Part shown: in pieces, positions 14,194 through 49,228 of the stretch | Numbering within the stretch: the stretch's first letter is position 1 | How the letters are laid out: the number at the start of each line of letters is the position of its first letter | NCBI GenBank assembly: GCA_963921795.1 | Contig: OY997647.1 | Span: 60,786,357 to 60,850,356, forward strand | Direction of reading: 5' to 3' | From: Nannobrachium achirus | Taxonomy: Eukaryota > Chordata > Actinopteri > Myctophiformes > Myctophidae | DNA length: 64,000 bases | Program-made: the position numbers and the translations under genes | The notes under the pieces: generated by a model | What the model was told of the DNA's origin: nothing | Database searches by the model: none | What the model saw: only the letters and a program-made list of their open reading frames with translations

Positions 14194-14830
14194 CCACGGC
14201 CATTCTGCTCACTAAGCCCATTTTCCACTGGCCCAACTCCACACCACTCCACACCACACCGCCCACTTGTGTCAGGTTTTCCACTAAGGACCTGGGTAGA
14301 GTGGAGTGAAAGTGGTACTAAACAGGGTACTAAAAAGTCACTATCCACTCTAGAGTAGGTCTGAGCTAGGCCAAACATGGCCAAACACTTCATAATGACT
14401 GATCACTCACTGACTAATATAGTTGTAATACATGATAATAGATTATATTGTGTTATAACCACTATTATAATCTATTAAAGTGTATTATAGTTATCATAGT
14501 AATACACTAATACTTTATAGGGTATTATAATCACAGTTATAATCCATTATAGTGTATTATAATTAATAGTTGTAATACAAATTTATATTGTATTATAACA
14601 GGGAATACACTTATAATACATTTATATTGTATTATAACAGGGAATAAACTCCCTGTCGCACTTAGAACAACGGACTCACTCGTTAGCTTTCGCCGTGGAC
14701 TGAGGACTCACCTTTTCAGACTCCACCTAAACCCTTAGCACTACAGAAAAAATCAATGAATACATGATAAACGTTTTCTTTTTCTTTATTTTTTTGCAGC
14801 TCCCTCACCACCCCACTTCCAACGCCCCTG
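14194..14830 (+). repeat. Satellite spacer, left-edge partial copy
   Basis: It starts at CCACGGCCATTCTG, so it lacks the first roughly 120 bp of a full spacer (compare 22975-23730). It contains a TTTTCCACT-type repeat segment, an AT-rich hairpin (arms AATAGATTATA 14437-14447 and TATAATCTATT 14466-14476), the captured L2 tail and the CT-rich tract. It differs slightly from all internal copies (CGTTAGC instead of CGCTAGC). Confidence 0.95.
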
Positions 14831-15757
14831 GTTAGTAACTACTAATACCATGGAACTGGACCTGAGGGCTAGGGCTAGGGATAGGGTTAATAACTACTAA
14901 TACCATGGAACTGGACCTGAGGGCTAGGGATAGGGCTAGGGTTAATAACTACTAATACCATGGAACTGGACCTGAGGGCTAGGGATAGGGTTAATAACTA
15001 CTAATACCATGGAACTGGACCTGAGGGCTAGGGCTAGGGATAGGGTTAATAACTACTAATACCATGGAACTGGACCTGAGGGCTAGGGATAGGGATATAG
15101 GGTTAATAACTACTAATACCATGGAACTGGACCTGAGGGCTAGGGCTAGGGATAGGGTTAATAACTACTAATACCATGGAACTGGACCCGAGGGCTAGGG
15201 CTAGGGTTAATAACTACTAATACCATGGAACTGGACCTGAGGGCTAGGGCTAGGGATAGGGTTAATAACTACTAATACCATGGAACTGGACCTGAGGGCT
15301 AGGGCTAGGGATAGGGATAATAACTACTAATACCATGGAAGTGGACCTGAGGGCTAGGGATAGGGCTAGGGATAGGGCTAGGGATAGGGCTAGGGATATA
15401 GGGCTAGGGTTAATAACTACTAATACCATGGAACTGGACCTGAGGGCTAGGGATAGGGATAGGGTTAATAACTACTACCATGGAACTGGACCTGAGGGCT
15501 AGGGATATAGGGCTAGGGCTAGGGATAATAACAACTAATACCATGGAACTGGACCTGAGGGCTAGGGATAGGGTTAGGGATAGGGATAGGCTAGGGCTAA
15601 TAACTATTAATACCATGGAACTGGACCTGAGGGATAGGGCTAGGGATAGGGCTAGGGCTAGGGATAGGGTTAATAACTACTAATACCATGGATCTGGACC
15701 TGAGGGCTAGGGATAGGGCTAGGGATAGGCTAATAACTACTAATACCATGGAACTGG
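14831..15757 (+). repeat. Monomer block 1
   Basis: Units are mostly 55 bp, with a long TAGGGN expansion at 15354-15412. Ends in the fused core CCATGGAACTGGAGTTGTAA. Confidence 0.95.
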
Positions 15758-16020
15758 AGTTGTAATACAAATTTATATTGTATTATAACAGGGAATAAAC
15801 TTATAATACATTTATATTGTATTATAACAGGGAATAAACTCCCTGTCGCACTTAGAACAACGGACTCACTCGTTAGCTTTCGCCGTGGACTGAGGACTCA
15901 CCTTTTCAGACTCCACCTAAACCCTTAGCACTACAGAAAAAATCAATGAATACATGATAAACGTTTTCTTTTTCTTTATTTTTTTGCAGCTCCCTCACCA
16001 CCCCACTTCCAACGCCCCTG
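15758..16020 (+). repeat. Short satellite spacer S1
   Basis: About 263 bp, beginning abruptly at AGTTGTAATACAAATTT inside what would be the AT-rich part of a full spacer. It keeps the L2 tail and CT tract. The L2 part still has CGTTAGC, as in the left-edge copy. Confidence 0.95.
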
Positions 16021-17265
16021 GTTAGTAACTACTAATACCATGGAACTGGACCTGAGGGCTAGGGCTAGGGATAGGGTTAATAACTACTAATACCATGGAA
16101 CTGGACCTGAGGGCTAGGGATAGGGCTAGGGTTAATAACTACTAATACCATGGAACTGGACCTGAGGGCTAGGGCTAGGGATAGGGTTAATAACTACTAA
16201 TACCATGGAACTGGACCTGAGGGCTAGGGATAGGGATATAGGGTTAATAACTACTAATACCATGGAACTGGACCTGAGGGCTAGGGCTAGGGATAGGGTT
16301 AATAACTACTAATACCATGGAACTGGACCCGAGGGCTAGGGCTAGGGTTAATAACTACTAATACCATGGAACTGGACCTGAGGGCTAGGGCTAGGGATAG
16401 GGTTAATAACTACTAATACCATGGAACTGGACCTGAGGGCTAGGGCTAGGGATAGGGATAATAACTACTAATACCATGGAACTGGACCTGAGGGCTAGGG
16501 CTAGGGATAGGGTTAATAACTACTAATACCATGGAACTGGACCTGAGGGCTAGGGATAGGGATAGGGTTAATAACTACTACCATGGAACTGGACCTGAGG
16601 GCTAGGGATATAGGGCTAGGGCTAGGGATAATAACAACTAATACCATGGAACTGGACCTGAGGGCTAGGGATAGGGCTAGGGTTAGGGGTAGGGGGGATA
16701 GGCTAGGGCTAATAACTATTAATACCATGGAACTGGACCTGAGGGATAGGGCTATGGATAGGGCTAGGGCTAGGGATAGGGTTAATAACCACTAATACCA
16801 TGGATCTGGACCTGAGGGCTAGGGATAGGGCTAGGGATAGGGATAATAACTACTAATACCATGGAACTGGACCTGAGTGCTAGGGATAGGCTAGGGATAG
16901 GGATAATAACGACTAATACCATGGAACTGGACCTGAGGGCTAGGGATAGGGATAGGGTTAGGGATAGGGCTAGGGATAGGGCTAGGGATAGGGTTAATAA
17001 CTACTAATACCATGGAACTGGACCTGAGGGCTAGGGATAGGGCTAGGGTTAATAACTACTAATACCATGGAACTGGACCTGAGGGCTAGGGATAGGGCTA
17101 GGGCTAGGGATAATAACTACTAATACCATGGAACTGGGCCTGAGGGCTAGGGATAGGGCTAGGGCTAGGGATAGGGTTAATAACTACTAATACCATGGAT
17201 CTGGACCTGAGGGCTAGGGATAGGGCTAGGGATAGGGATAATAACTACTAATGCCATGGAACTGG
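16021..17265 (+). repeat. Monomer block 2
   Basis: Shares its variant order (ACCACTAAT, GATCTGG, GAGTGCTAGG) with the next two blocks. Confidence 0.95.
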
Positions 17266-17530
17266 AGTTGTAATACAAATTTATATTGTATTATAACAGG
17301 GAATAAACTTATAATACATTTATATTGTATTATAACAGGGAATAAACTCCCTGTCGCACTTAGAACAATGGACTCACTCGCTAGCTTTCGCCGTGGACTG
17401 AAGACTCACCTTTTCAGACTCCACCTAAACCCTTAGCACTACAGAAAAAATCAATGAATACATGATAAACGTTTTCTTTTTCTTTCTTTTTTTTTGCAGC
17501 TCCCTCACCACCCCACTTCCAACGCCCCTG
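17266..17530 (+). repeat. Short satellite spacer S2
   Basis: Same junction as S1, but with CGCTAGC and the longer CT tract found in the internal full spacers. Confidence 0.95.
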
Positions 17531-18940
17531 GTTAGTAACTACTAATACCATGGAACTGGTCCTGAGGGCTAGGGCTAGGGATAGGGTTAATAACTACTAA
17601 TACCATGGAACTGGACCTGAGGGCTAGGGATAGGGCTAGGGTTAATAACTACTAATACCATGGAACTGGACCTGAGGGCTAGGGCTAGGGATAGGGTTAA
17701 TAACTACTAATACCATGGAACTGGACCTGAGGGCTAGGGCTAGGGATAGGGTTAATAACTACTAATACCATGGAACTGGACCTGAGGGCTAGGGATAGGG
17801 ATATAGGGTTAATAACTACTAATACCATGGAACTGGACCTGAGGGCTAGGGCTAGGGATAGGGTTAATAACTACTAATACCATGGAACTGGACCCGAGGG
17901 CTAGGGCTAGGGTTAATAACTACTAATACCATGGAACTGGACCTGAGGGCTAGGGCTAGGGATAGGGTTAATAACTACTAATACCATGGAACTGGACCTG
18001 AGGGCTAGGGCTAGGGATAGGGATAATAACTACTAATACCATGGAACTGGACCTGAGGGCTAGGGCTAGGGATAGGGTTAATAACTACTAATACCATGGA
18101 ACTGGACCTGAGGGCTAGGGATAGGGATAGGGATAATAACTACTAATACCATGGAACTGGACCTGAGGGCTAGGGCTAGGGATAGGGTTAATAACTACTA
18201 ATACCATGGAACTGGACCTGAGGGCTAGGGATAGGGATAGGGTTAATAACTACTACCATGGAACTGGACCTGAGGGCTAGGGATATAGGGCTAGGGCTAG
18301 GGATAATAACAACTAATACCATGGAACTGGACCTGAGGGCTAGGGATAGGGCTAGGGTTAGGGGTAGGGGGGATAGGCTAGGGCTAATAACTATTAATAC
18401 CATGGAACTGGACCTGAGGGATAGGGCTATGGATAGGGCTAGGGCTAGGGATAGGGTTAATAACCACTAATACCATGGATCTGGACCTGAGGGCTAGGGA
18501 TAGGGCTAGGGATAGGGATAATAACTACTAATACCATGGAACTGGACCTGAGTGCTAGGGATAGGCTAGGGATAGGGATAATAACGACTAATACCATGGA
18601 ACTGGACCTGAGGGCTAGGGATAGGGATAGGGTTAGGGATAGGGCTAGGGATAGGGCTAGGGATAGGGTTAATAACTACTAATACCATGGAACTGGACCT
18701 GAGGGCTAGGGATAGGGCTAGGGTTAATAACTACTAATACCATGGAACTGGACCTGAGGGCTAGGGATAGGGCTAGGGCTAGGGATAATAACTACTAATA
18801 CCATGGAACTGGACCTGAGGGCTAGGGATAGGGCTAGGGCTAGGGATAGGGTTAATAACTACTAATACCATGGATCTGGACCTGAGGGCTAGGGATAGGG
18901 CTAGGGATAGGGATAATAACTACTAATGCCATGGAACTGG
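17531..18940 (+). repeat. Monomer block 3
   Basis: Near-identical to block 2 over most of its length, with extra monomers in the first half. Confidence 0.95.
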
Positions 18941-19205
18941 AGTTGTAATACAAATTTATATTGTATTATAACAGGGAATAAACTTATAATACATTTATAT
19001 TGTATTATAACAGGGAATAAACTCCCTGTCGCACTTAGAACAATGGACTCACTCGCTAGCTTTCGCCGTGGACTGAAGACTCACCTTTTCAGACTCCACC
19101 TAAACCCTTAGCACTACAGAAAAAATCAATGAATACATGATAAACGTTTTCTTTTTCTTTCTTTTTTTTTGCAGCTCCCTCACCACCCCACTTCCAACGC
19201 CCCTG
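18941..19205 (+). repeat. Short satellite spacer S3
   Basis: Nearly identical to S2. Confidence 0.95.
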
Positions 19206-22200
19206 GTTAGTAACTACTAATACCATGGAACTGGTCCTGAGGGCTAGGGCTAGGGATAGGGTTAATAACTACTAATACCATGGAACTGGACCTGAGGGCT
19301 AGGGATAGGGCTAGGGTTAATAACTACTAATACCATGGAACTGGACCTGAGGGCTAGGGCTAGGGATAGGGTTAATAACTACTAATACCATGGAACTGGA
19401 CCTGAGGGCTAGGGCTAGGGATAGGGTTAATAACTACTAATACCATGGAACTGGACCTGAGGGCTAGGGATAGGGATATAGGGTTAATAACTACTAATAC
19501 CATGGAACTGGACCTGAGCGCTAGGGCTAGGGATAGGGTTAATAACTACTAATACCATGGAACTGGACCCGAGGGCTAGGGCTAGGGTTAATAACTACTA
19601 ATACCATGGAACTGGACCTGAGGGCTAGGGCTAGGGATAGGGTTAATAACTACTAATACCATGGAACTGGACCTGAGGGCTAGGGATAGGGATATAGGGT
19701 TAATAACTACTAATACCATGGAACTGGACCTGAGGGCTAGGGCTAGGGATAGGGATAATAACTACTAATACCATGGAACTGGACCTGAGGGCTAGGGCTA
19801 GGGATAGGGTTAATAACTACTAATACCATGGAACTGGACCTGAGGGCTAGGGATAGGGATAGGGTTAATAACTACTACCATGGAACTGGACCTGAGGGCT
19901 AGGGATATAGGGCTAGGGCTAGGGATAATAACAACTAATACCATGGAACTGGACCTGAGGGCTAGGGATAGGGATAGGGATAGGCTAGGGCTAATAACTA
20001 TTAATACCATGGAACTGGACCTGAGGGATAGGGCTATGGATAGGGCTAGGGCTAGGGATAGGGTTAATAACCACTAATACCATGGATCTGGACCTGAGGG
20101 CTAGGGATAGGGCTAGGGATAGGGATAATAACTACTAATACCATGGAACTGGACCTGAGTGCTAGGGATAGGCTAGGGATAGGGATAATAACGACTAATA
20201 CCATGGAACTGGACCTGAGGGCTAGGGATAGGGTTAGGGTTAGGGATAGGGCTAGGGATAGGGCTAGGGATAGGGTTAATAACTACTAATACCATGGAAC
20301 TGGACCTGAGGGCTAGGGATAGGGCTAGGGTTAATAACTACTAATACCATGGAACTGGACCTGAGGGCTAGGGATAGGGCTAGGGCTAGGGATAATAACT
20401 ACTAATACCATGGAACTGGACCTGAGGGCTAGGGATAGGGCTAGGGCTAGGGATAGGGCTAGGGCTAATAACTATTAATACCATGGAATTGGACCTGAGG
20501 GATAGGGCTAGGGATAGGGCTAGGGATAGGGTTAATAACTACTAATACCATGGATCTGGACCTGAGGGCTAGGGATAGGGCTAGGGATAGGGATAATAAC
20601 GACTAATACCATGGAACTGGTCCTGAGGGCTAGGGATAGGGATAGGGTTAGGGTTAGGGTTAGGGCTAGGGATAGGGCTAGGGTTAGGGTTAGGGATAGG
20701 GCTAGGGATAGGGCTAGGGCTAATAACTACTAATACCATGGAACTGGACCTGAGGGCTAGGGATAGGGCTAGGGCTAGGGTTAGGGCTAGGGCTAATAAC
20801 TACTAATACCATGGAACTGGACCTGAGGGCTAGGGATAGGGCTAGGGATAATAACTACTAATACCATGGAACTGGACCTGAGGGCTAGGGATAGGGCTAG
20901 GGATAATAACTACTAATACCATGGAACTGGACCTGAGGGCTAGGGATAGGGCTAGGGATAGGGATAATAACGACTAATACCATGGAACTGGACCTGAGGG
21001 CTAGGGATAGAGATAGGGTTAGGGATAGGGCTAGGGCTAGGGATAGGGTTAATAACTACTAATACCATGGAACTGGACCTGAGGGCTAGGGATAGGGATA
21101 GGGCTAGGGATATGGATAGGGATAGGGATAGGGCTAGGGTTAATAACTACTAATACCATGGAACTGGACCTGAGGGCTAGGGCTAGGGATAGGGTTAATA
21201 ACTACTAATACCATGGAACTGGACCTGAGGGCTAGGGCTAGGGATAGGGTTAATAACTACTAATACCATGGAACTGGACCTGAGGGCTAGGGCTAGGGAT
21301 AGGGATAATAACTACTAATACCATGGAACTGGACCTGAGGGCTAGGGATAGGGCTAGGGATAGGGATAATAACGACTAATACCATGGAACTGGACCTGAG
21401 GGCTAGGGATAGGGATAGGGTTAGGGTTAGGGCTAGGGATAGGGCTAGGGATAGGGTTAATAACTACTAATACCATGGAACTGGACCTGAGGGCTAGGGA
21501 TAGGGCTAGGGCTAGGGCTAGGGATAGGGCTAGGGATAGGGCTAGGGATAGGGATAATAACTACTAATACCATGGAACTGGACCTGAGGGCTAGGGATAG
21601 GGCTAGGGCTAATAACTACTAATACCATGGAACTGGACCTGAGGGCTAGGGATAGGGCTAGGGCTAGGGCTAGGGTTAGGGCTAGGGCTAATAACTACTA
21701 AGACCATGGAACTGGACCTGAGGGCTAGGGATAGGGCTAGGGATAATAACTACTAATACCATGGAACTGGACCTGAGGGCTAGGGATAGGGCTAGGGATA
21801 ATAACTACTAATACCATGGAACTGGACCTGAGGGCTAGGGATAGGGCTAGGGATAGGGATAATAACGACTAATACCATGGAACTGGACCTGAGGGCTAGG
21901 GATAGAGATAGGGTTAGGGATAGGGCTAGGGCTAGGGATAGGGTTAATAACTACTAATACCATGGAACTGGACCTGAGGGCTAGGGATAGAGATAGGGAT
22001 AGGGCTAGGGCTAGGGATAGGGCTAGGGATAAGGCTAGGGCTAATAACTACTAATACCATGGAACTGGACCTGAGGGCTAGGGATAGGGCTAGGGATAGG
22101 GCTAGGGATAGGGCTAGGGTTAATAACTACTAATACCATGGAACTGGACCTGAGGGCTAGGGATAGGGCTAGGGATAGGGCTAGGGCTAGGGATAGGGCT

Positions 22201-22974
22201 AGGGTTAATAACTACTAATACCATGGAACTGGACCTGAGGGCTAGGGATAGGGCTAGGGTTAATAACTACTAATACCATGGAACTGGACCTGAGGGCTAG
22301 GGATAGGGCTAGGGATAGGGCTAGGGATAGGGATAGGGATAGGGCTAGGGTTAATAACTACTAATACCATGGAACTGGACCTGAGGGCTAGGGCTAGGGA
22401 TAGGGTTAATAACTACTAATACCATGGAACTGGACCTGAGGGCTAGGGCTAGGGATAGGGTTAATAACTACTAATACCATGGAACTGGACCTGAGGGCTA
22501 GGGATAGGGATAATAACGACTAATACCATGGAACTGGACCTGAGGGCTAGGGATAGGGCTAGGGATAGGGATAATAACGACTAATACCATGGAACTGGAC
22601 CTGAGGGCTAGGGCTAGGGCTAGGGATAGGGTTAATAACTACTAATACCATGGAACTGGACCTGAGGGCTAGGGATAGGGTTAATAACTACTAATACCAT
22701 GGAACTGGACCTGAGGGCTAGGGCTAGGGATAGGGATAATAACTACTAATACCATGGAACTGGACCTGAGGGCTAGGGATAGGGCTAGGGATAGGGTTAA
22801 TAACTACTAATACCATGGAACTGGACCTGAGGGCTAGGGATAGGGCTAGGGATAGGGTTAATAACTACTAATATGGAACTTGACCTGAGGGCTAGGGCTA
22901 GGGCTAGGGATAGGGTTAATAACTACTAATACCATGGAACTTGACCTGAGGGCTAGGGATAGGGATAGGGTTAG
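19206..22974 (+). repeat. Monomer block 4
   Basis: Begins like block 3 and then changes into the long-hexamer-tract monomers typical of the central array. TTAGGG triplets occur around 20647-20668. Confidence 0.95.
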
Positions 22975-23730
22975 TGATGTTCCTGATTGGATGACCGCTC
23001 TAGGTTTAACCCCTTGAACCCCGACATCCATTATTCTGATGAACATTCACCATCAACTCTTCTGTTGAGTACAAAGGCCTTCCTAAATAGGCCTATCCAC
23101 GGCCATTCTGCTCACTAAGCCCATTTTCCACTGGCCCAACTCCACACCACTCCACACCACACCGCCCACTTGTGTCAGGTTTTCCACTAAGGACCTGGGT
23201 AGAGTGGAGTGAAAGTGGTACTAAACAGGGTACTAAAAAGTATCCACTCTAGAGTAGGTCTGAGCTAGGCCAAACATGGCCAAACACTTCATAATGACTG
23301 ATCACTCACTGACTAATATAGTTGTAATGCATGATAATAGATTATATTGTGTTATAACCACTATTATAATCTATTAAAGTGTATTATAGTTATCATAGTA
23401 ATACATTAATACTTTATAGGGTATTATAATCACAGTTATAATCCATTATAGTGTATTATAATTAATAGTTGTAATACAAATTTATATTGTATTATAACAG
23501 GGAATAAACTTATAATACATTTATATTGTATTATAACAGGGAATAAACTCCCTGTCGCACTTAGAACAATGGACTCACTCGCTAGCTTTCGCCGTGGACT
23601 GAAGACTCACCTTTTCAGACTCCACCTAAACCCTTAGCACTACAGAAAAAATCAATGAATACATGATAAACGTTTTCTTTTTCTTTCTTTTTTTTGCAGC
23701 TCCCTCACCACCCCACTTCCAACGCCCCTG
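22975..23730 (+). repeat. Full satellite spacer L1
   Basis: Order: a roughly 120-bp unique segment (TGATGTTCCTGATTGG onward), a segment with paired TTTTCCACT motifs resembling a common teleost interspersed repeat, the AT-rich hairpin, a 39-bp duplicated TATTGTATTATAACAGGG block, L2 coding tail (23541 to about 23640, reading NKLPVALRTMDSLASFRRGL and onward to a stop), L2 3' sequence, and a CT tract ending in TTTGCAG. Confidence 0.95.
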
Positions 23731-26700
23731 GTTAGTAACTACTAATACCATGGAACTGGACCTGAGGGCTAGGGCTAGGGATAGGGTTAATAACTACTAA
23801 TACCATGGAACTGGACCTGAGGGCTAGGGATAGGGCTAGGGTTAATAACTACTAATACCATGGAACTGGACCTGAGGGCTAGGGCTAGGGATAGGGTTAA
23901 TAACTACTAATACCATGGAACTGGACCTGAGGGCTAGGGCTAAGGATAGGGTTAATAACTACTAATACCATGGAACTGGACCTGAGGGCTAGGGCTAGGG
24001 ATAGGGTTAATAACTACTAATACCATGGAACTGGACCTGAGGGCTAGGGATAGGGCTAGAGATAGGGCTAGGGCTAGGGCTAGGGATAGGGTTAATAACT
24101 ACTAATACCATGGAACTGGACCTGAGGGCTAGGGATAGGGCTAGGGATAGGGCTAGGGCTAGGGATAGGGATAGGGATAGGGCTAGGGTTAATAACTACT
24201 AATACCATGGAACTGGACCTGAGGGCTAGGGATAGGGCTAGGGATAGGGCTAGGGCTAGGGATAGGGCTAGGGTTAATAACTACTAATACCATGGAACTG
24301 GACCTGAGGGCTAGGGTTAGGGCTAGGGTTAATAACTACTAATACCATGGAACTGGACCTGAGGGCTAGGGATAGGGCTAGGGATAGGGCTAGGGATAGG
24401 GATAGGGATAGGGATAGGGCTAGGGTTAATAACTACTAATACCATGGAACTGGACCTGAGGGCTAGGGCTAGGGATAGGGTTAATAACTACTAATACCAT
24501 GGAACTGGACCTGAGGGCTAGGGCTAGGGATAGGGTTAATAACTACTAATACCATGGAACTGGACCTGAGGGCTAGGGCTAGGGATAGGGATAATAACTA
24601 CTAATACCATGGAACTGGACCTGAGGGCTAGGGATAGGGCTAGGGATAGGGCTAGGGATAGGGCTAGGGATAGGGATAGGGATAGGGATAGGGATAGGGC
24701 TAGGGTTAATAACTACTAATACCATGGAACTGGACCTGAGGGCTAGGGCTAGGGATAGGGTTAATAACTACTAATACCATGGAACTGGACCTGAGGGCTA
24801 GGGCTAGGGATAGGGTTAATAACTACTAATACCATGGAACTGGACCTGAGGGCTAGGGCTAGGGATAGGGATAATAACTACTAATACCATAGAACTGGAC
24901 CTGAGGGCTAGGGATAGGGCTAGGGATAGGGATAATAACGACTAATACCATGGAACTGGACCTGAGGGCTAGGGATAGGGATAGGGTTAGGGTTAGGGCT
25001 AGGGATAGGGCTAGGGATAGGGTTAATAACTACTAATACCATGGAACTGGACCTGAGGGCTAGGGATAGGGCTAGGGCTAGGGCTAGGGATAGGGCTAGG
25101 GATAGGGCTAGGGATAGGGATAATAACTACTAATACCATGGAACTGGACCTGAGGGCTAGGGATAGGGCTAGGGCTAATAACTACTAATACCATGGAACT
25201 GGACCTGAGGGCTAGGGATAGGGCTAGGGCTAGGGTTAGGGCTAGGGCTAATAACTACTAATACCACGGAACTGGACCTGAGGGCTAGGGATAGGGCTAG
25301 GGATAATAACTACTAATACCATGGAACTGGACCTGAGGGCTAGGGATAGGGCTAGGGATAATAACTACTAATACCATGGAACTGGACCTGAGGGCTAGGG
25401 ATAGGGCTAGGGATAGGGATAATAACGACTAATACCATGGAACTGGACCTGAGGGCTAGGGATAGAGATAGGGTTAGGGATAGGGCTAGGGCTAGGGATA
25501 GGGTTAATAACTACTAATACCATGGAACTGGACCTGAGGGCTAGGGATAGGGCTAGGGCTAGGGATAGGGCTAGGGATAAGGCTAGGGCTAATAACTACT
25601 AATACCATGGAACTGGACCTGAGGGCTAGGGATAGGGCTAGGGATAGGTCTAGGGATAGGGCTAGGGTTAATAACTACTAATACCATGGAACTGGACCTG
25701 AGGGCTAGGGATAGGGCTAGGGATAGGGCTAGGGCTAGGGATAGGGCTAGGGTTAATAACTACTAATACCATGGAACTGGACCTGAGGGCTAGGGTTAGG
25801 GCTAGGGTTAATAACTACTAATACCATGGAACTGGACCTGAGGGCTAGGGATAGGGCTAGGGATAGGGCTAGGGATAGGGCTAGGGATAGGGCTAGGGAT
25901 AGGGATAATAACTACTAATACCATGGAACTGGACCTGAGGGCTAGGGATAGGGCTAGGGCTAATAACTACTAATACCATGGAACTGGACCTGAGGGCTAG
26001 GGATAGGGCTAGGGCTAGGGTTAGGGCTAGGGCTAATAACTACTAATACCACGGAACTGGACCTGAGGGCTAGGGATAGGGCTAGGGATAATAACTACTA
26101 ATACCATGGAACTGGACCTGAGGGCTAGGGATAGGGCTAGGGATAATAACTACTAATACCATGGAACTGGACCTGAGGGCTAGGGATAGGGCTAGGGATA
26201 GGGATAATAACGACTAATACCATGGAACTGGACCTGAGGGCTAGGGATAGAGATAGGGTTAGGGATAGGGCTAGGGCTAGGGATAGGGTTAATAACTACT
26301 AATACCATGGAACTGGACCTGAGGGCTAGGGATAGGGCTAGGGCTAGGGATAGGGCTAGGGATAAGGCTAGGGCTAATAACTACTAATACCATGGAACTG
26401 GACCTGAGGGCTAGGGATAGGGCTAGGGATAGGTCTAGGGATAGGGCTAGGGTTAATAACTACTAATACCATGGAACTGGACCTGAGGGCTAGGGATAGG
26501 GCTAGGGATAGGGCTAGGGCTAGGGATAGGGCTAGGGTTAATAACTACTAATACCATGGAACTGGACCTGAGGGCTAGGGTTAGGGCTAGGGTTAATAAC
26601 TACTAATACCATGGAACTGGACCTGAGGGCTAGGGATAGGGCTAGGGATAGGGCTAGGGATAGGGATAGGGATAGGGATAGGGCTAGGGTTAATAACTAC

Positions 26701-31200: not shown

Positions 31201-31427
31201 ATAATAACTACTAATACCATGGAACTGGACCTGAGGGCTAGGGATAGGGTTAATAACTACTAATACCATGGAACTGGACCTGAGGGCTAGGGATAGGGCT
31301 AGGGATAGGGTTAATAACTACTAATATGGAACTTGACCTGAGGGCTAGGGCTAGGGCTAGGGATAGGGTTAATAACTACTAATACCATGGAACTTGACCT
31401 GAGGGCTAGGGATAGGGATAGGGTTAG
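28281..31427 (+). repeat. Monomer block 6
   Basis: Starts with the same first seven monomers as block 5. It corresponds to block 8 in the duplicated superunit. Confidence 0.92.
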
Positions 31428-36800: not shown

Positions 36801-37045
36801 CTAGGGCTAGGGATAGGGATAATAACTACTAATACCATGGAACTGGACCTGAGGGCTAGGGATAGGGTTAATAACTACTAATACCATGGAACTGGACCTG
36901 AGGGCTAGGGATAGGGCTAGGGATAGGGTTAATAACTACTAATATGGAACTTGACCTGAGGGCTAGGGCTAGGGCTAGGGATAGGGTTAATAACTACTAA
37001 TACCATGGAACTTGACCTGAGGGCTAGGGATAGGGATAGGGTTAG
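33887..37045 (+). repeat. Monomer block 8
   Basis: Matches block 6 monomer for monomer, including the rare CCATAGAACTGG core and the GGACCAGAGG variant. Confidence 0.92.
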
Positions 37046-38889: not shown

Positions 38890-39646
38890 TGATGTTCCTG
38901 ATTGGATGACCGCTCTAGGTTTAACCCCTTGAACCCCGACATCCATTATTCTGATGAACATTCACCATCAACTCTTCTGTTGAGTACAAAGGCCTTCCTA
39001 AATAGGCCTATCCACGGCCATTCTGCTCACTAAGCCCATTTTCCACTGGCCCAACTCCACACCACTCCACACCACACCGCCCACTTGTGTCAGGTTTTCC
39101 ACTAAGGACCTGGGTAGAGTGGAGTGAAAGTGGTACTAAACAGGGTACTAAAAAGTATCCACTCTAGAGTAGGTCTGAGCTAGGCCAAACATGGCCAAAC
39201 ACTTCATAATGACTGATCACTCACTGACTAATATAGTTGTAATGCATGATAATAGATTATATTGTGTTATAACCACTATTATAATCTATTAAAGTGTATT
39301 ATAGTTATCATAGTAATACATTAATACTTTATAGGGTATTATAATCACAGTTATAATCCATTATAGTGTATTATAATTAATAGTTGTAATACAAATTTAT
39401 ATTGTATTATAACAGGGAATAAACTTATAATACATTTATATTGTATTATAAAAGGGAATAAACTCCCTGTCGCACTTAGAACAATGGACTCACTCGCTAG
39501 CTTTCGCCGTGGACTGAAGACTCACCTTTTCAGACTCCACCTAAACCCTTAGCACTACAGAAAAAATCAATGAATACATGATAAACGTTTTCTTTTTCTT
39601 TCTTTTTTTTTGCAGCTCCCTCACCACCCCACTTCCAACGCCCCTG
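38890..39646 (+). repeat. Full satellite spacer L6
   Basis: Carries a private change ATTATAAAAGGG, shared only with L8. Confidence 0.95.
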
Positions 39647-42170
39647 GTTAGTAACTACTAATACCATGGAACTGGACCTGAGGGCTAGGGCTAGGGATAG
39701 GGTTAATAACTACTAATACCATGGAACTGGACCTGAGGGCTAGGGATAGGGCTAGGGTTAATAACTACTAATACCATGGAACTGGACCTGAGGGCTAGGG
39801 CTAGGGATAGGGTTAATAACTACTAATACCATGGAACTGGACCTGAGGGCTAGGGCTAAGGATAGGGTTAATAACTACTAATACCATGGAACTGGACCTG
39901 AGGGCTAGGGCTAGGGATAGGGTTAATAACTACTAATACCATGGAACTGGACCTGAGGGCTAGGGATAGGGCTAGAGATAGGGCTAGGGCTAGGGCTAGG
40001 GATAGGGTTAATAACTACTAATACCATGGAACTGGACCTGAGGGCTAGGGATAGGGCTAGGGATAGGGCTAGGGCTAGGGCTAGGGATAGGGCTAGGGAT
40101 AGGGCTAGGGTTAATAACTACTAATACCATGGAACTGGACCTGAGGGCTAGGGATAGGGCTAGGGATAGGGCTAGGGCTAGGGTTAGAGCTAGGGTTAAT
40201 AACTACTAATACCATGGAACTGGACCTGAGGGCTAGGGTTAGGGCTAGGGTTAATAACTACTAATACCATGGAACTGGACCTGAGGGCTAGGGATAGGGC
40301 TAGGGATAGGGCTAGGGATAGGGCTAGGGATAGGGATAGGGATAGGGCTAGGATTAATAACTACTAATACCATGGAACTGGACCTGAGGGCTAGGGCTAG
40401 GGATAGGGTTAATAACTACTAATACCATGGAACTGGACCTGAGGGCTAGGGCTAGGGATAGGGTTAATAACTACTAATACCATGGAACTGGACCTGAGGG
40501 CTAGGGCTAGGGGTAGCGATAATAACTACTAATACCATGGAACTGGACCTGAGGGCTAGGGATAGGGCTAGGGATAGGGATAATAACGACTAATACCATG
40601 GAACTGGACCTGAGGGCTAGGGATAGGGATAGGGTTAGGGTTAGGGCTAGGGATAGGGCTAGGGATAGGGTTAATAACTACTAATACCATGGAACTGGAC
40701 CTGAGGGCTAGGGATAGGGCTAGGGCTAGGGCTAGGGCTAGGGATAGGGCTAGGGATAGGGCTAGGGATAGGGATAATAACTACTAATACCATGGAACTG
40801 GACCTGAGGGCTAGGGATAGGGCTAGGGCTAATAACTACTAATACCATGGAACTGGACCTGAGGGCTAGGGATAGGGCTAGGGCTAGGGCTAGGGTTAGG
40901 GCTAGGGCTAATAACTACTAATACCATGGAACTGGACCTGAGGGCTAGGGATAGGGCTAGGGATAATAACTACTAATACCATGGAACTGGACCTGAGGGC
41001 TAGGGATAGGGCTAGGGATAATAACTACTAATACCATGGAACTGGACCTGAGGGCTAGGGATAGGGCTAGGGATAGGGATAATAACGACTAATACCATGG
41101 AACTGGACCTGAGGGCTAGGGATAGAGATAGGGTTAGGGATAGGGCTAGGGCTAGGGATAGGGTTAATAACTACTAATACCATGGAACTGGACCTGAGGG
41201 CTAGGGATAGGGCTAGGGCTAGGGATAGGGCTAGGGATAAGGCTAGGGCTAATAACTACTAATACCATGGAACTGGACCTGAGGGCTAGGGATAGGGCTA
41301 GGGATAGGGCTAGGGATAGGGCTAGGGTTAATAACTACTAATACCATGGAACTGGACCTGAGGGCTAGGGTTAGGGCTAGGGATAGGGCTAGGGCTAGGG
41401 ATAGGGCTAGGGTTAATAACTACTAATACCATGGAACTGGACCTGAGGGCTAGGGATAGGGCTAGGGTTAATAACTACTAATACCATGGAACTGGACCTG
41501 AGGGCTAGGGATAGGGCTAGGGATAGGGATAGGGATAGGGATAGGGCTAGGGTTAATAACTACTAATACCATGGAACTGGACCTGAGGGCTAGGGCTAGG
41601 GATAGGGTTAATAACTACTAATACCATGGAACTGGACCTGAGGGCTAGGGCTAGGGATAGGGTTAATAACTACTAATACCATGGAACTGGACCTGAGGGC
41701 TAGGGCTAGGGATAGGGTTAATAACTACTAATACCATGGAACTGGACCTGAGGGCTAGGGCTAGGGATAGGGTTAATAACTACTAATACCATGGAACTGG
41801 ACCTGAGGGCTAGGGCTAGGGCTAGGGATAGGGTTAATAACTACTAATACCATGGAACTGGACCTGAGGGCTAGGGATAGGGTTAATAACTACTAATACC
41901 ATGGAACTGGACCTGAGGGCTAGGGCTAGGGATAGGGATAATAACTACTAATACCATGGAACTGGACCTGAGGGCTAGGGATAGGGCTAGGGATAGGGTT
42001 AATAACTACTAATACCATGGAACTGGACCTGAGGGCTAGGGATAGGGCTAGGGATAGGGTTAATAACTACTAATATGGAACTTGACCTGAGGGCTAGGGC
42101 TAGGGCTAGGGATAGGGTTAATAACTACTAATACCATGGAACTTGACCTGAGGGCTAGGGATAGGGATAG
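39647..42170 (+). repeat. Monomer block 10
   Basis: Related to blocks 5, 6 and 8 but with its own hexamer counts. Confidence 0.92.
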
Positions 42171-42859
42171 TGATGTTCCTGATTGGATGACCGCTCTAGG
42201 TTTAACCCCTTGAACCCCGACATCCATTATTCTGATGAACATTCACCATCAACTCTTCTGTTGAGTACAAAGGCCTTCCTAACACCACACCGCCCACTTG
42301 TGTCAGGTTTTCCACTAAGGACCTGGGTAGAGTGGAGTGAAAGTGGTACTAAACAGGGTACTAAAAAGTATCCACTCTAGAGTAGGTCTGAGCTAGGCCA
42401 AACATGGCCAAACACTTCATAATGACTGATCACTCACTGACTAATATAGTTGTAATGCATGATAATAGATTATATTGTGTTATAACCACTATTATAATCT
42501 ATTAAAGTGTATTATAGTTATCATAGTAATACATTAATACTTTATAGGGTATTATAATCACAGTTATAATCCATTATAGTGTATTATAATTAATAGTTGT
42601 AATACAAATTTATATTGTATTATAACAGGGAATAAACTTATAATACATTTATATTGTATTATAACAGGGAATAAACTCCCTGTCGCACTTAGAACAATGG
42701 ACTCACTCGCTAGCTTTCGCCGTGGACTGAAGACTCACCTTTTCAGACTCCACCTAAACCCTTAGCACTACAGAAAAAATCAATGAATACATGATAAACG
42801 TTTTCTTTTTCTTTCTTTTTTTTTGCAGCTCCCTCACCACCCCACTTCCAACGCCCCTG
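42171..42859 (+). repeat. Full-type spacer L7 with an internal deletion
   Basis: About 67 bp are missing between CTTCCTAA and CACCACACCGCCC. The ends of the gap lie in short CCACACCAC-type repeats, suggesting slippage. Confidence 0.95.
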
Positions 42860-43952
42860 GTTAGTAACTACTAATACCATGGAACTGGACCTGAGGGCTA
42901 GGGCTAGGGATAGGGTTAATAACTACTAATACCATGGAACTGGACCTGAGGGCTAGGGATAGGGCTAGGGTTAATAACTACTAATACCATGGAACTGGAC
43001 CTGAGGGCTAGGGCTAGGGATAGGGTTAATAACTACTAATACCATGGAACTGGACCTGAGGGCTAGGGCTAAGGATAGGGTTAATAACTACTAATACCAT
43101 GGAACTGGACCTGAGGGCTAGGGCTAGGGATAGGGTTAATAACTACTAATACCATGGAAATGGACCTGAGGGCTAGGGATAGGGCTAGAGTTAGGGCTAG
43201 GGCTAGGGCTAGGGATAGGGTTAATAACTACTAATACCATGGAACTGGACCTGAGGGCTAGGGATAGGGCTAGGGATAGGGCTAGGGCTAGGGATAGGGA
43301 TAGGGATAGGGCTAGGGTTAATAACTACTAATACCATGGAACTGGACCTGAGGGCTAGGGATAGGGCTAGGGATAGGGCTAGGGCTAGGGATAGGGCTAG
43401 GGTTAATAACTACTAATACCATGGAACTGGACCTGAGGGCTAGGGATAGGGCTAGGGTTAATAACTACTAATACCATGGAACTGGACCTGAGGGCTAGGG
43501 ATAGGGCTAGGGATAGGGCTAGGGATAGGGTTAGGGATAGGGATAGGGCTAGGGTTAATAACTACTAATACCATGGAACTGGACCTGAGGGCTAGGGCTA
43601 GGGATAGGGTTAATAACTACTAATACCATGGAACTGGACCTGAGGGCTAGGGATAGGGTTAATAACTACTAATACCATGGAACTGGACCTGAGGGCTAGG
43701 GCTAGGGATAGGGATAATAACTACTAATACCATGGAACTGGACCTGAGGGCTAGGGATAGGGCTAGGGATAGGGTTAATAACTACTAATACCATGGAACT
43801 GGACCTGAGGGCTAGGGATAGGGCTAGGGATAGGGTTAATAACTACTAATATGGAACTTGACCTGAGGGCTAGGGCTAGGGCTAGGGATAGGGTTAATAA
43901 CTACTAATACCATGGAACTTGACCTGAGGGCTAGGGATAGGGATAGGGTTAG
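42860..43952 (+). repeat. Monomer block 11 (short)
   Basis: Very close to block 9. Confidence 0.92.
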
Positions 43953-44709
43953 TGATGTTCCTGATTGGATGACCGCTCTAGGTTTAACCCCTTGAACCCC
44001 GACATCCATTATTCTGATGAACATTCACCATCAACTCTTCTGTTGAGTACAAAGGCCTTCCTAAATAGGCCTATCCACGGCCATTCTGCTCACTAAGCCC
44101 ATTTTCCACTGGCCCAACTCCACACCACTCCACACCACACCGCCCACTTGTGTCAGGTTTTCCACTAAGGACCTGGGTAGAGTGGAGTGAAAGTGGTACT
44201 AAACAGGGTACTAAAAAGTATCCACTCTAGAGTAGGTCTGAGCTAGGCCAAACATGGCCAAACACTTCATAATGACTGATCACTCACTGACTAATATAGT
44301 TGTAATGCATGATAATAGATTATATTGTGTTATAACCACTATTATAATCTATTAAAGTGTATTATAGTTATCATAGTAATACATTAATACTTTATAGGGT
44401 ATTATAATCACAGTTATAATCCATTATAGTGTATTATAATTAATAGTTGTAATACAAATTTATATTGTATTATAACAGGGAATAAACTTATAATACATTT
44501 ATATTGTATTATAAAAGGGAATAAACTCCCTGTCGCACTTAGAACAATGGACTCACTCGCTAGCTTTCGCCGTGGACTGAAGACTCACCTTTTCAGACTC
44601 CACCTAAACCCTTAGCACTACAGAAAAAATCAATGAATACATGATAAACGTTTTCTTTTTCTTTCTTTTTTTTTGCAGCTCCCTCACCACCCCACTTCCA
44701 ACGCCCCTG
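43953..44709 (+). repeat. Full satellite spacer L8
   Basis: Shares the ATTATAAAAGGG change with L6, so L6 and L8 are sister copies. Confidence 0.95.
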
Positions 44710-46438
44710 GTTAGTAACTACTAATACCATGGAACTGGACCTGAGGGCTAGGGATAGGGATAGGGTTAATAACTACTAATACCATGGAACTGGACCTGAG
44801 GGCTAGGGATAGGGCTAGGGTTAATAACTACTAATACCATGGAACTGGACCTGAGGGCTAGGGCTAGGGATAGGGTTAATAACTACTAATACCATGGAAC
44901 TGGACCTGAGGGCTAGGGCTAAGGATAGGGTTAATAACTACTAATACCATGGAACTGGACCTGAGGGCTAGGGCTAGGGATAGGGTTAATAACTACTAAT
45001 ACCATGGAACTGGACCTGAGGGCTAGGGATAGGGCTAGAGATAGGGCTAGGGCTAGGGCTAGGGATAGGGTTAATAACTACTAATACCATGGAACTGGAC
45101 CTGAGGGCTAGGGATAGGGCTAGGGATAGGGATAGGGCTAGGGCTAGGGATAGGGCTAGGGTTAATAACTACTAATACCATGGAACTGGACCTGAGGGCT
45201 AGGGATAGGGCTAGGGATAGGGATAGGGCTAGGGTTAATAACTACTAATACCATGGAACTGGACCTGAGGGCTAGGGTTAGGGCTAGGGTTAATAACTAC
45301 TAATACCATGGAACTGGACCTGAGGGCTAGGGATAGGGCTAGGGATAGGGCTAGGGATAGGGATAAGGATAGGGATAGGGCTAGGGTTAATAACTACTAA
45401 TACCATGGAACTGGACCTGAGGGCTAGGGCTAGGGATAGGGTTAATAACTACTAATACCATGGAACTGGACCTGAGGGCTAGGGCTAGGGATAGGGTTAA
45501 TAACTACTAATACCATGGAACTGGACCTGAGGGCTAGGGCTAGGGATAGGGTTAATAACTACTAATACCATGGAACTGGACCTGAGGGCTAGGGCTAGGG
45601 ATAGGGTTAATAACTACTAATACCATGGAACTGGACCTGAGGGCTAGGGCTAGGGATAGGGTTAATAACTACTAATACCATGGAACTGGACCTGAGGGCT
45701 AGGGCTAGGGATAGGGTTAATAACTACTAATACCATGGAACTGGACCTGAGGGCTAGGGCTAAGGATAGGGTTAATAACTACTAATACCATGGAACTGGA
45801 CCTGAGGGCTAGGGCTAGGGATATGGTTAATAACTACTAATACCATGCAACTGGACCTGAGGGCTAGGGATAGGGATAATAACGACTAATACCATGGAAC
45901 TGGACCTGAGGGCTAGGGATAGGGCTAGGGATAGGGATAATAACGACTAATACCATGGAACTGGACCTGAGGGCTAGGGCTAGGGCTAGGGATAGGGTTA
46001 ATAACTACTAATACCATGGAACTGGACCTGAGGGCTAGGGATAGGGTTAATAACTACTAATACCATGGAACTGGACCTGAGGGCTAGGGCTAGGGCTAGG
46101 GATAGGGTTAATAACTACTAATACCATGGAACTGGACCTGAGGGCTAGGGATAGGGTTAATAACTACTAATACCATGGAACTGGACCTGAGGGCTAGGGC
46201 TAGGGATAGGGATAATAACTACTAATACCATGGAACTGGACCTGAGGGCTAGGGATAGGGTTAATAACTACTAATACCATGGAACTGGACCTGAGGGCTA
46301 GGGATAGGGCTAGGGATAGGGTTAATAACTACTAATATGGAACTTGACCTGAGGGCTAGGGCTAGGGCTAGGGATAGGGTTAATAACTACTAATACCATG
46401 GAACTTGACCTGAGGGCTAGGGATAGGGATAGGGTTAG
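44710..46438 (+). repeat. Monomer block 12
   Basis: Contains a private GATAAGGATAGGG variant and a CCATGCAACTGG core in which the NcoI site is lost. Confidence 0.92.
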
Positions 46439-47195
46439 TGATGTTCCTGATTGGATGACCGCTCTAGGTTTAACCCCTTGAACCCCGACATCCATTATTC
46501 TGATGAACATTCACCATCAACTCTTCTGTTGAGTACAAAGGCCTTCCTAAATAGGCCTATCCACGGCCATTCTGCTCACTAAGCCCATTTTCCACTGGCC
46601 CAACTCCACACCACTCCACACCACACCGCCCACTTGTGTCAGGTTTTCCACTAAGGACCTGGGTAGAGTGGAGTGAAAGTGGTACTAAACAGGGTACTAA
46701 AAAGTATCCACTCTAGAGTAGGTCTGAGCTAGGCCAAACATGGCCAAACACTTCATAATGACTGATCACTCACTGACTAATATAGTTGTAATGCATGATA
46801 ATAGATTATATTGTGTTATAACCACTATTATAATCTATTAAAGTGTATTATAGTTATCATAGTAATACATTAATACTTTATAGGGTATTATAATCACAGT
46901 TATAATCCATTATAGTGTATTATAATTAATAGTTGTAATACAAATTTATATTGTATTATAACAGGGAATAAACTTATAATACATTTATATTGTATTATAA
47001 CAGGGAATAAACTCCCTGTCGCACTTAGAACAATGGACTCACTCGCTAGCTTTCGCCGTGGACTGAAGACTCACCTTTTCAGACTCCACCTAAACCCTTA
47101 GCACTACAGAAAAAATCAATGAATACATGATAAACGTTTTCTTTTTCTTTCTTTTTTTTTGCAGCTCCCTCACCACCCCACTTCCAACGCCCCTG
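46439..47195 (+). repeat. Full satellite spacer L9
   Basis: As L3. Confidence 0.95.
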
Positions 47196-49109
47196 GTTAG
47201 TAACTACTAATACCATGGAACTGGACCTGAGGGCTAGGGCTAGGGATAGGGTTAATAACTACTAATACCATGGAACTGGACCTGAGGGCTAGGGATAGGG
47301 CTAGGGTTAATAACTACTAATACCATGGAACTGGACCTGAGGGCTAGGGCTAGGGATAGGGTTAATAACTACTAATACCATGGAACTGGACCTGAGGGCT
47401 AGGGCTAGGGATATGGATAATAACTACGAATACCATGGAACTGGACCTGAGGGCTAGGGCTAGGGATAGGGCTAGGGCTAATAACTACTAATACCATGGA
47501 ACTGGACCTGAGGGCTAGGGATAGGGCTAGGGATAATAAGTACTAATACCATGGAACTGGACCTGAGGGCTAGGGATAGGGCTAGGGATAGGGTTAATAA
47601 CTACTAATACCATGGAACTGGACCTGAGGGCTAGGGATAGGGATAGGGCTAGGGCTAGGGATAGGGCTAGGGATAGGGCTAGGGTTAATAACTACTAATA
47701 CCACGGAACTGGACCTGAGGGCTAGGGTTAGGGATAGGGCTAGGGTTAGGGTTAGGGTTAGGGTTAGGGTTAATAACTACTAATACCATGGAACTGGACC
47801 TGAGGGCTAGGGATAGGGCTAGGGTTAATAACTACTAATACCATGGAACTGGACCTGAGGGCTAGGGATAGGGCTAGGGATAGGGATAATAACTACTAAT
47901 ACCATGGAACTGGACCTGAGGGCTAGGGATAGGGCTAGGGCTAGGGATAGGGCTAGGGCTAATAACTATTAATACCATGGAACTGGACCTGAGGGCTAGG
48001 GATAGGGCTAGGGCTAGGGATAATAACTACTAATACCATGGAACTGGACCTGAGGGCTAGGGTTAGGGCTAGGGATAGGGCTAGGGCTAATAACTATTAC
48101 TACCATGGAACTGGACCTGAGGGCTAGGGATAGGGATAATAACGACTAATACCATGGAACTGGACCTGAGGGCTAGGGATAGGGCTAGGGGTAGGGTTAA
48201 TAACTACTAATACCATGGAATTGGACCTGAGGGCTAGGGATAGGGCTAGGGATAGGGTTAATAACTACTAATACCATGGAACTGGACCTGAGGGCTAGGG
48301 ATAGGGTTAATAACTACTAATACCATGGAACTGGACCTGAGGGCTAGGGTTAGGGATAGGGCTAGGGTTAGGGTTAGGGTTAGGGTTAGGGTTAATAACT
48401 ACTAATACCATGGAACTGGACCTGAGGGCTAGGGATAGGGCTAGGGTTAATAACTACTAATACCATGGAACTGGACCTGAGGGCTAGGGATAGGGCTAGG
48501 GATAGGGATAATAACTACTAATACCATGGAACTGGACCTGAGGGCTAGGGATAGGGCTAGGGCTAGGGATAGGGCTAGGGCTAATAACTATTAATACCAT
48601 GGAACTGGACCTGAGGGCTAGGGATAGGGCTAGGGCTAGGGATAATAACTACTAATACCATGGAACTGGACCTGAGGGCTAGGGTTAGGGCTAGGGATAG
48701 GGCTAGGGCTAATAACTATTACTACCATGGAACTGGACCTGAGGGCTAGGGATAGGGATAATAACGACTAATACCATGGAACTGGACCTGAGGGCTAGGG
48801 ATAGGGCTAGGGGTAGGGTTAATAACTACTAATACCATGGAATTGGACCTGAGGGCTAGGGATAGGGCTAGGGATAGGGTTAATAACTACTAATACCATG
48901 GAACTGGACCTGAGGGCTAGGGATAGGGTTAATAACTACTAATACCATGGAACTGGACCTGAGGGCTAGGGCTAGGGCTAGGGATAGGGTTAATAACTAC
49001 TAATACCATGGAACTTGACCTGAGGGCTAGGGATAGGGATAGGGATAGGGTTAATAACTACTAATACCATGGAACTTGACCTGAGGGCTAGGGATAGGGA
49101 TAGGGTTAG
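47196..49109 (+). repeat. Monomer block 13, right-edge block
   Basis: More diverged from the central blocks. It contains a tandem duplication of 622 bp (about 47720-48341 and 48342-48963), each copy with a run of five pure GGGTTA hexamers (47743-47772 and 48364-48394). Confidence 0.92.
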
Positions 49110-49228
49110 TGATGATCCTGATTGGATGACTGCTCTAGGTTTAACCCCTTGAACCCCGACATCCATTATTCTGATGAACATTCACCATCAACTCTTCTGT
49201 CGAGTACAAAGGCCTTCCTAAATAGGCC
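49110..49228 (+). repeat. Right-edge partial satellite spacer
   Basis: Holds only the first roughly 120 bp of the full spacer and stops at AAATAGGCC, with private changes (TGATGATCC, GACTGCTC, CTGTCGAG). Confidence 0.95.

What the first reader, a model, noticed from the sequence alone, without database searches (positions are those of the whole stretch)
14194..49228. A 35-kb satellite made of a unique core joined to variable telomere-like hexamers
Each monomer joins a non-telomeric core of about 31 bp to 3-10 or more hexamers of the form TAGGG(C/A/T). Length varies in 6-bp steps, so two mutation processes act at once: hexamer slippage and unequal exchange of monomers. All monomers face the same way, so about 27 kb of one strand carries GGG every 6 bases in clusters, ideal for G-quadruplexes. 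I do not know a described satellite of this composition. It could be a former subtelomere, a telomere-seeded array or a chromosome-specific satellite.
Basis: partly seen in the sequence, partly recalled or inferred. Interest (0 to 1): 0.85.

Follow-up and report, generated by a model that had tools for sequence, protein, structure and literature searches.

The report
Nested telomere-like satellite on several chromosomes
The 35-kb block is real: it is a repeat of repeats, in which a short telomere-like minisatellite and a fixed 0.8-kb spacer are copied together in tandem, and the same family recurs on other large contigs of the same genome.

Summary
Confirmed: 14194-49228 holds 423 same-facing monomers, a 31-bp core (311 exact) plus (C/A/T)TAGGG hexamers; 392 of 410 core-to-core links are multiples of 6 bp. 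Three corrections. (1) It is not a simple satellite: 13 monomer blocks alternate with a spacer (132-bp tail + 647-bp head). Eight full spacers differ pairwise at 0-3 positions and blocks share monomer order, so whole 1.7-4.5-kb units were duplicated. (2) TTAGGG is only 60 of 1,797 NTAGGG here. (3) It is not unique: the assembly (1.66 Gb) has 6,861 exact cores. All 64 exact copies of a tail piece lie on eight contigs, 6.3-9.3 Mb from a contig end, in mixed orientation. Other loci hold pure monomer arrays, and one joins the same monomers to an unrelated dispersed repeat. Best reading: a multi-chromosome nested satellite that changes by hexamer slippage, monomer-block gain and loss and unit duplication, is homogenised per contig, and has made higher-order units with two unrelated DNA segments. 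Former subtelomere, telomere seeding and mobile element with fixed ends are less supported. No function is shown or needed.

The parts
14194..49228 (+). whole tandem array of composite units
   Evidence: spacer homology begins at 14194 and ends at 49228; 423 cores between
14194..14842 (+). first head, 98.0% identical to internal heads
   Evidence: 7 substitutions and 6 gap columns
14834..22948 (+). left four monomer blocks (16, 21, 24 and 58 monomers), separated by three truncated heads
   Evidence: mean core edits 0.69, 0.71, 0.62, 0.47
15758..16032 (+). truncated head 1, joined directly to a cut monomer
17266..17542 (+). truncated head 2
18941..19217 (+). truncated head 3
22965..23742 (+). 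full spacer (tail+head) 1
   Evidence: 99.9%
23734..27498 (+). monomer block of 57; holds an 11-monomer stretch doubled at 785-bp offset (802-bp exact match 25079 / 25864)
27515..28292 (+). full spacer 2
   Evidence: 99.9%
28284..31401 (+). monomer block of 49
31418..32196 (+). full spacer 3
   Evidence: 100%
32188..33104 (+). monomer block of 17
33121..33898 (+). full spacer 4
   Evidence: 99.9%
33890..37019 (+). monomer block of 49, reference block for the order comparison
37036..37814 (+). full spacer 5
   Evidence: 99.9%
37806..38863 (+). monomer block of 17
38880..39658 (+). full spacer 6
   Evidence: 99.9%
39650..42150 (+). monomer block of 38
42161..42871 (+). spacer with 67 bp missing at the tail/head junction
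42863..43926 (+). monomer block of 17
43943..44721 (+). full spacer 7
   Evidence: 99.9%
44713..46412 (+). monomer block of 29
46429..47207 (+). full spacer 8 (query spacer; tail 46429-46560, head 46561-47207; a piece about 47004-47130 is shared with dispersed repeats at 51130 and 62021)
47199..49083 (+). last monomer block, 31 monomers, with a 10-monomer stretch doubled at 622-bp offset
49100..49228 (+). last tail, 97.7% identical to internal tails
   Evidence: 3 differences
14189..14193 (.). GGCCA abutting the left boundary
49229..49233 (.). GGCCA abutting the right boundary (5-bp direct repeat with 14189-14193)

Best explanation
This is one locus of a multi-chromosome nested satellite. The basic repeat is a 31-bp core plus a variable run of (C/A/T)TAGGG hexamers. 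It changes at three scales: one or two hexamers gained or lost; blocks of monomers gained or lost; and tandem duplication of a whole unit (spacer + monomer block). SHOWN: these three scales of difference, near identity of units inside the locus, more core changes at the array edges, clustering of heads by contig, the same monomers elsewhere as pure arrays and in a second composite with an unrelated dispersed repeat as spacer. INFERRED: monomer blocks supply the homology by which unequal exchange or break-induced copying duplicates what lies between two blocks, so that captured DNA becomes a higher-order unit; G-quadruplex-prone CTAGGG runs promote the hexamer changes; pieces of arrays now and then move between chromosomes, after which each locus is homogenised on its own. 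No selected function is needed.
For: Monomers and 6-bp links; units with near-identical spacers; shared monomer order against shuffles; two block pairs differ by 5 substitutions and 4 indels, all multiples of 6 bp; block gaps of 2 to 32 monomers; hexamer number varies in 7 of 13 long against 2 of 35 short columns here, 5 of 7 against 8 of 31 in C12, pooled 15 of 25 against 22 of 89; edge blocks less uniform; heads within contigs 0.15-0.77% apart, between 1.0-1.85%; pure array on C5 and the second composite on C1, whose spacer piece has 892 exact copies genome-wide, five of the 100 listed at 2.1-2.3-kb steps in the C1 array; CTAGGG variant reported as unstable in the male germline (passages of PMC3867476).
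Against: In C13 the long/short contrast is absent (3 of 5 against 12 of 23). Many expanded runs here are of ATAGGG, not CTAGGG, so a special role of CTAGGG is not shown. Columns and blocks are related by descent, so the Fisher values overstate independence. Order of events (pure first, spacer later) is not shown. One assembly; no reads, no second individual.
Confidence: 0.7

Rival explanations
1. The unit (head + minisatellite + tail) is a non-autonomous mobile element with internal tandem repeats, and the arrays are amplified insertions of it.
For: In the window both array edges coincide with unit ends and are abutted by the same 5 bp, GGCCA (about 1 in 1,000 by chance for fixed places, GGCC is common nearby). 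The left edge of C13 also falls near a unit start. The head holds pieces of dispersed repeats. Satellites born inside elements are known (passages of PMC9659126; abstract of PMC4079207).
Against: Edges at C7 (both), C4a left, C12 right and C13 right lie inside a monomer, and the C9 edge lies inside the head. All 64 exact tail copies are at loci that also bear monomers where I looked. No clear terminal inverted repeat was found. Pure arrays lack head and tail.
Confidence: 0.12
2. A former subtelomere or telomere-seeded array: true TTAGGG repeats, left inside by fusion or inversion or added by telomerase at a break, degenerated and spread.
For: All hexamers have telomere form. TTAGGG reaches 22-25% in C5, C7 and C11 stretches, and one run of 12 TTAGGG occurs in the C4 stretch. 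Telomere-like blocks in subtelomeres are known (passages of PMC6410037).
Against: TTAGGG is 3.3% here and 1.6-5.5% in C13, C12, C4 and C9 stretches. Longest TTAGGG run in the window array is 4. Orientation to the contig end is mixed, 4 against 4. TTAGGG occurs 7 and 8 times on the two strands of 28,965 bp of flank, near chance.
Confidence: 0.1
3. A pericentromeric satellite of chromosomes with one short arm, kept or tolerated there because of its place, possibly with a role in heterochromatin.
For: All 64 tail copies lie 6.3-9.3 Mb from the nearer contig end on eight contigs, and all 100 listed of 161 copies of a core variant lie 6.3-11.2 Mb in. Eight uniform loci would agree so well with chance about 2e-7 (formula) to 1e-6 (simulation) (post hoc, 35-Mb half length assumed).
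Against: No centromere was located and contig ends were not shown to be telomeres. A 306-bp satellite beside C13 and C12 arrays does not single out one place per contig: listed copies lie near contig starts and also deep inside (first 100 of 1,428). C1 also has monomers at 3.13 Mb. Only eight contigs carry the exact tail.
Confidence: 0.25
4. Assembly artefact: units multiplied or misjoined by the assembler.
For: Exact repeats up to 1,886 bp; a 200-N gap lies at one array end on C4.
Against: Blocks differ in length, in core variants and in hexamers; no N in the window; similar arrays on other contigs carry their own variants.
Confidence: 0.04

Closest known systems
Higher-order-repeat satellites (human alpha satellite; passages of PMC8336445)
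   Same: Tandem units that are near identical to each other, each made of smaller, differing monomers; local homogenisation.
   Different: Here each unit also holds a 0.8-kb non-repeat spacer, and the monomer itself contains a variable hexamer run.
Nested tandem repeats in the sense of one motif interspersed with variable runs of another (Matroud and colleagues; recalled, one search found no such paper held)
   Same: Core alternating with a variable number of hexamers.
   Different: Further nested inside larger units with a spacer, and on several chromosomes.
Composite elements of the human telomere-to-telomere repeat annotation (recalled; one search found no such paper held)
   Same: Unit of satellite, mobile-element pieces and other sequence in tandem.
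   Different: Same monomer found here with two different spacers and with none.
Elements with internal tandem repeats that seed satellites (Helentron-type CgHINE, passages of PMC9659126; Tetris, abstract of PMC4079207)
   Same: Tandem repeats beside mobile-element pieces; spread over the genome.
   Different: No fixed element ends here; in the second composite the dispersed repeat seems to have joined the satellite, not the reverse (inference).
Heterochromatic and subtelomeric interstitial telomeric sequences (passages of PMC6410037)
   Same: Telomere-form hexamers inside chromosomes.
   Different: Mostly CTAGGG and ATAGGG, broken every few hexamers by a non-telomeric core.
CTAGGG variant repeats of human telomeres (passages of PMC3867476)
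   Same: Same hexamer; reported G4 folding and instability.
   Different: Here internal, mixed with ATAGGG, and in a nested satellite; instability not measured.

Membership tests
Higher-order-repeat satellite | Tandem multi-monomer units, near identical to each other | tested here: met
   Spacers differ at 0-3 of 779 positions; shared monomer order
Higher-order-repeat satellite | Homogenised within a chromosome more than between | tested here: met
   Heads 0.15-0.77% within, 1.0-1.85% between contigs; 47 heads of five contigs
Higher-order-repeat satellite | Copy number differs between individuals | not testable with these tools
   one assembly only
Nested tandem repeat (recalled definition) | One motif separated by variable whole numbers of another | tested here: met
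   392 of 410 links multiples of 6 bp, 3 to 16 hexamer lengths
Interstitial telomeric sequence | Made chiefly of TTAGGG | tested here: not met
   60 of 1,797 NTAGGG; at most 25% at the nine loci compared
Former subtelomere | Consistent orientation towards the chromosome end | tested here: not met
   four contigs towards, four away
Mobile element with internal tandem repeats | Fixed ends at all insertions | tested here: not met
   edges inside monomer or head at C4a left, C7, C9, C12 right, C13 right; at unit ends in the window and at C13 left
Mobile element with internal tandem repeats | Target-site duplication | tested here: inconclusive
   GGCCA on both sides in the window; other loci not tested in this way
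Mobile element with internal tandem repeats | Solo copies away from arrays | tested here: inconclusive
   64 exact tail copies at array loci only; diverged solo copies not searched exhaustively
Pericentromeric satellite | Lies at the centromere | not testable with these tools
   common band 6.3-9.3 Mb from contig ends; no centromere data
G4-driven unstable repeat | Forms G4 and is unstable in vivo | not tested
   motif count only; more hexamer-number variation in long runs in two of three arrays

The most novel reading that the evidence does not exclude
The core+hexamer minisatellite is itself the engine: its G4-prone CTAGGG/ATAGGG runs make replication fail, and repair between neighbouring monomer blocks copies whatever lies between them, so that DNA which lands in an array (spacer A; the dispersed repeat of the C1 composite) becomes a higher-order satellite unit, and pieces spread within one subterminal band shared by many chromosomes. 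One genome would then show pure, first-spacer and second-spacer stages of satellite birth side by side.
Probability: 0.3. Interest if true: 0.7.

Novelty: new variant of a known kind. Interest (0 to 1): 0.55.

Why it matters
How complex satellites with non-repeat spacers arise is usually guessed from end products. Here the same monomer occurs as pure arrays, with one spacer on eight contigs, and with a different spacer that is also a dispersed repeat elsewhere in the genome; the ordered hexamer codes give a readable record of slippage, block loss and unit duplication. That makes the relative rates of the three processes, and transfer between chromosomes, measurable from sequence. CTAGGG is the hexamer reported as unstable in human telomeres, so the system is also a natural test of that claim away from chromosome ends.

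Tried and rejected
Rejected or left open: a single simple satellite (spacers); a contig-end telomere (the window is internal on a 67.7-Mb contig); coding function (no stop-to-stop frame of 120 aa or more lies within 14194-49228; 22 ATG frames of 60-78 aa overlap it); RNA genes (0 Rfam matches at gathering score and 0 tRNAs in the window). Exact core and hexamer patterns gave 0 in viral contigs and the core 0 in prokaryote contigs: uninformative for a eukaryote. The full-text search for core and hexamer strings listed 12 papers, none holding any of the three core strings (listing only); other listings without a described relative that I recognised. A first core parser missed imperfect cores and was replaced. 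The 306-bp satellite was tried as a centromere marker and did not serve. Before I took the flanks to share nothing but that satellite; one search had printed only 40 rows of one pair, and one search shows further, short matches. A survey of monomers on contigs after C13 did not complete.

Rows dropped: one search used 8 of 13 C10 blocks; one search left out 5 of 13 C10 blocks, 2 of 12 C12 blocks and 2 of 20 C13 blocks as edge or divergent blocks, and counted length states within 3 characters of the reference; one search used 47 heads longer than 600 bp, so truncated and split heads are out. The 2-of-36 figure counted a block-end token; 2 of 35 does not.
Full report
WHAT IS THERE. The array spans 14194-49228. 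It has 423 cores of about 31 bp, all on the + strand; 311 match the consensus exactly, 87 have one edit, 25 have two to four. Between cores lie runs of AGGG(C/A/T)T hexamers; 392 of 410 links are multiples of 6 bp. NTAGGG in the span: C 1,020, A 713, T 60, G 4; none of the four on the minus strand. So the repeat has telomere form, but in this window only 3% is the vertebrate telomere hexamer.

The monomers do not run through. Thirteen blocks (26,466 of 35,035 bp) are separated by 12 spacers: eight complete 779-bp tail+head spacers, one with 67 bp missing, and three truncated heads of 275-277 bp; a head opens the array and a tail closes it. The eight complete spacers differ pairwise at 0-3 positions. 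The head is patched from dispersed material: a 129-bp piece recurs near 51130 and 62021 in the window (92 and 95%), and another piece recurs alone at C12:57881203 (95.9%).

HOW IT CHANGES. Written as codes of core variant and hexamer letters, blocks share ordered series: 233 shared ordered triplets among the eight central blocks; 500 shuffles gave a mean of 8.6 and a maximum of 21. Hence whole units were duplicated. Below that, blocks of monomers are missing or doubled: gaps of 2 to 32 monomers against a reference block, an 11-monomer stretch doubled at 785-bp offset and a 10-monomer stretch doubled at 622-bp offset. Below that, hexamer number changes: blocks 28284 and 33890 differ by 2 substitutions and two 6-bp indels in 3.1 kb; blocks 37806 and 42863 by 3 substitutions and indels of 12 and 6 bp. 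In this array 7 of 13 columns with six or more hexamers vary in number against 2 of 35 shorter ones; the contrast holds in C12 (5 of 7 against 8 of 31) but not in C13 (3 of 5 against 12 of 23); pooled 15 of 25 against 22 of 89, Fisher p 0.0015. Some short-column variation in C13 may be misaligned look-alike monomers; I did not resolve that, and columns are not independent. Cores are less uniform at the edges: mean edits 0.69, 0.71, 0.62, 0.47 in the four left blocks, 0.19-0.41 in the eight central ones, 0.52 in the last, as expected if exchange homogenises the middle (inference).

WHERE ELSE. The window is C10:60786357-60850356 of an unnamed 1.6585-Gb assembly. The exact core with AGGG occurs 6,861 times (3,904 + and 2,957 -); the 100 places shown are all on C1, at 3.13-3.15 and 7.99-8.03 Mb. 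A 31-base piece of the tail occurs 64 times, all listed: C1 8.02-8.03 Mb, C4 6.54-6.66, C7 65.73, C9 7.43, C10 60.81-60.83, C11 7.69-7.71, C12 57.89-57.92, C13 7.44-7.48 and 9.21-9.26. With contig lengths, all 64 are 6.3-9.3 Mb from the nearer contig end. A rarer core variant occurs 161 times; the 100 places shown (the list stops within C12) add C5 at 7.52-7.54 and 11.21 Mb, C7 at 64.55 and 65.75, C9 up to 7.47 and C11 at 7.02, again 6.3-11.2 Mb from an end. The monomers on C1 at 3.13 Mb are an exception. For eight loci, such agreement in end distance has a chance of about 2e-7 (formula) to 1e-6 (simulation) under uniform placement, but the test was made after seeing the pattern, and contig ends were not shown to be telomeres.

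Orientation: the G-rich strand runs to the nearer contig end at C7, C9, C10 and C11 (3 of 4 copies) and away from it at C1, C4, C12 (11 of 12 copies) and C13. Flanks: 11 stretches from six arrays share a 306-bp satellite beside C13 and C12 and otherwise only matches of 66 to 575 bp, as dispersed repeats give; the longest between contigs is 506 bp (C13 right / C7 left) and the longest of all is between the two flanks of the window itself. One such repeat lies within 1 kb of the right edge both here and at C13. So the flanks are not the same place copied, as far as these short stretches tell. Array edges fall inside a monomer at C7 (both), C4a left, C12 right and C13 right, and inside the head at C9. 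In the window the edges coincide with unit ends and carry GGCCA on both sides, and the C13 left edge lies near a unit start, which is why the mobile-element rival stays alive.

Homogenisation: among 47 heads from five contigs, distances are 0.15-0.77% within and 1.0-1.85% between contigs; C12 and C13 have starred support, C4 is weaker, the first head of the window falls outside the other C10 heads, and the bootstrap had not settled.

OTHER FORMS. C5:7.519-7.529 Mb is pure: 165 monomers, no spacer, 164 of 164 links multiples of 6. The fetched C9 stretch has 178 monomers with one tail and part of a head at its edge; the C11 7.02-Mb stretch has 129 monomers with two interruptions of other sequence. 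C1:3.129-3.134 Mb has 33 of the same monomers but a different spacer of 927-942 bp with no match to head or tail; a 34-bp piece of it occurs 892 times in the genome on both strands, and in the C1 array at 2.1-2.3-kb steps (five of the 100 listed places). So two unrelated spacers form tandem units with the same monomer. CTAGGG makes 53-61% of hexamers at all nine loci compared, while TTAGGG ranges from 1.6 to 25% and ATAGGG from 19 to 44%.

MECHANISM. Shown are the three scales of difference, local homogenisation and joining to unrelated spacers. Inferred is the link: monomer blocks give homology on both sides of inserted DNA, so unequal exchange or break-induced copying duplicates it. [quoted passage not shown] the original paper asked for was not held. 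Against a special role of CTAGGG, several of the runs that changed here are of ATAGGG.

KNOWN OR NEW. In kind this is a higher-order satellite with a nested repeat as monomer and a spacer in the unit. A resemblance to the composite elements of the human telomere-to-telomere annotation, and the formal notion of nested tandem repeats of Matroud and colleagues, are recalled only (searches found no such paper held). No described satellite of this sequence turned up in the full-text search with core strings or among the titles and abstracts listed by topic searches, in an open-licence library without most subscription journals and without a repeat database. I rate it a new variant of a known kind.

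Noticed in passing
L028 (C13:7490001-7500000), L017 3092-5322 (C12): A 306-bp tandem repeat (32.6 copies, 95% matches in L028) lies about 2 kb beyond the C13 array, and a related 333-bp form beside the C12 array; a 37-base piece has 1,428 exact copies, the 100 listed being often near contig starts and sometimes deep inside.
   Followed up: partly
C1:3129001-3134000 (L035): Spacer of the second composite begins and ends with short palindromes and its end motif has 892 exact copies on both strands, so it looks like a dispersed mobile element.
   Followed up: partly
window 9659-10369 and 10362-11342, + strand: Two long adjoining open frames in different frames, possibly one frameshifted gene or element; no Pfam match.
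   Followed up: partly
window 13498-13878 (+), 62051-62671 (-), 51130-51258 (-): Frames and fragments that look to me like the 3' ends of LINE elements (recalled; no Pfam match); the 62021 and 51130 pieces share 129 bp with the head, and 13584-14153 recurs in the right flank and on C13.
   Followed up: partly
C12:57886600-57887100 (L017): A short + facing piece (two monomers, a tail, 112 bp of head) abuts the long - facing array: an inversion junction.
   Followed up: no
C4:6557849-6558048 (L031): A 200-N gap ends the monomer array there, so that array is not fully assembled.
   Followed up: no
C4:6535001-6565000 (L029-L031): One run of 12 TTAGGG, the longest at the nine loci compared.
   Followed up: no
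window 53-167, 588-696, 2878-2990, 5435-5619: Long perfect or nearly perfect CA repeats in the left flank.
   Followed up: no
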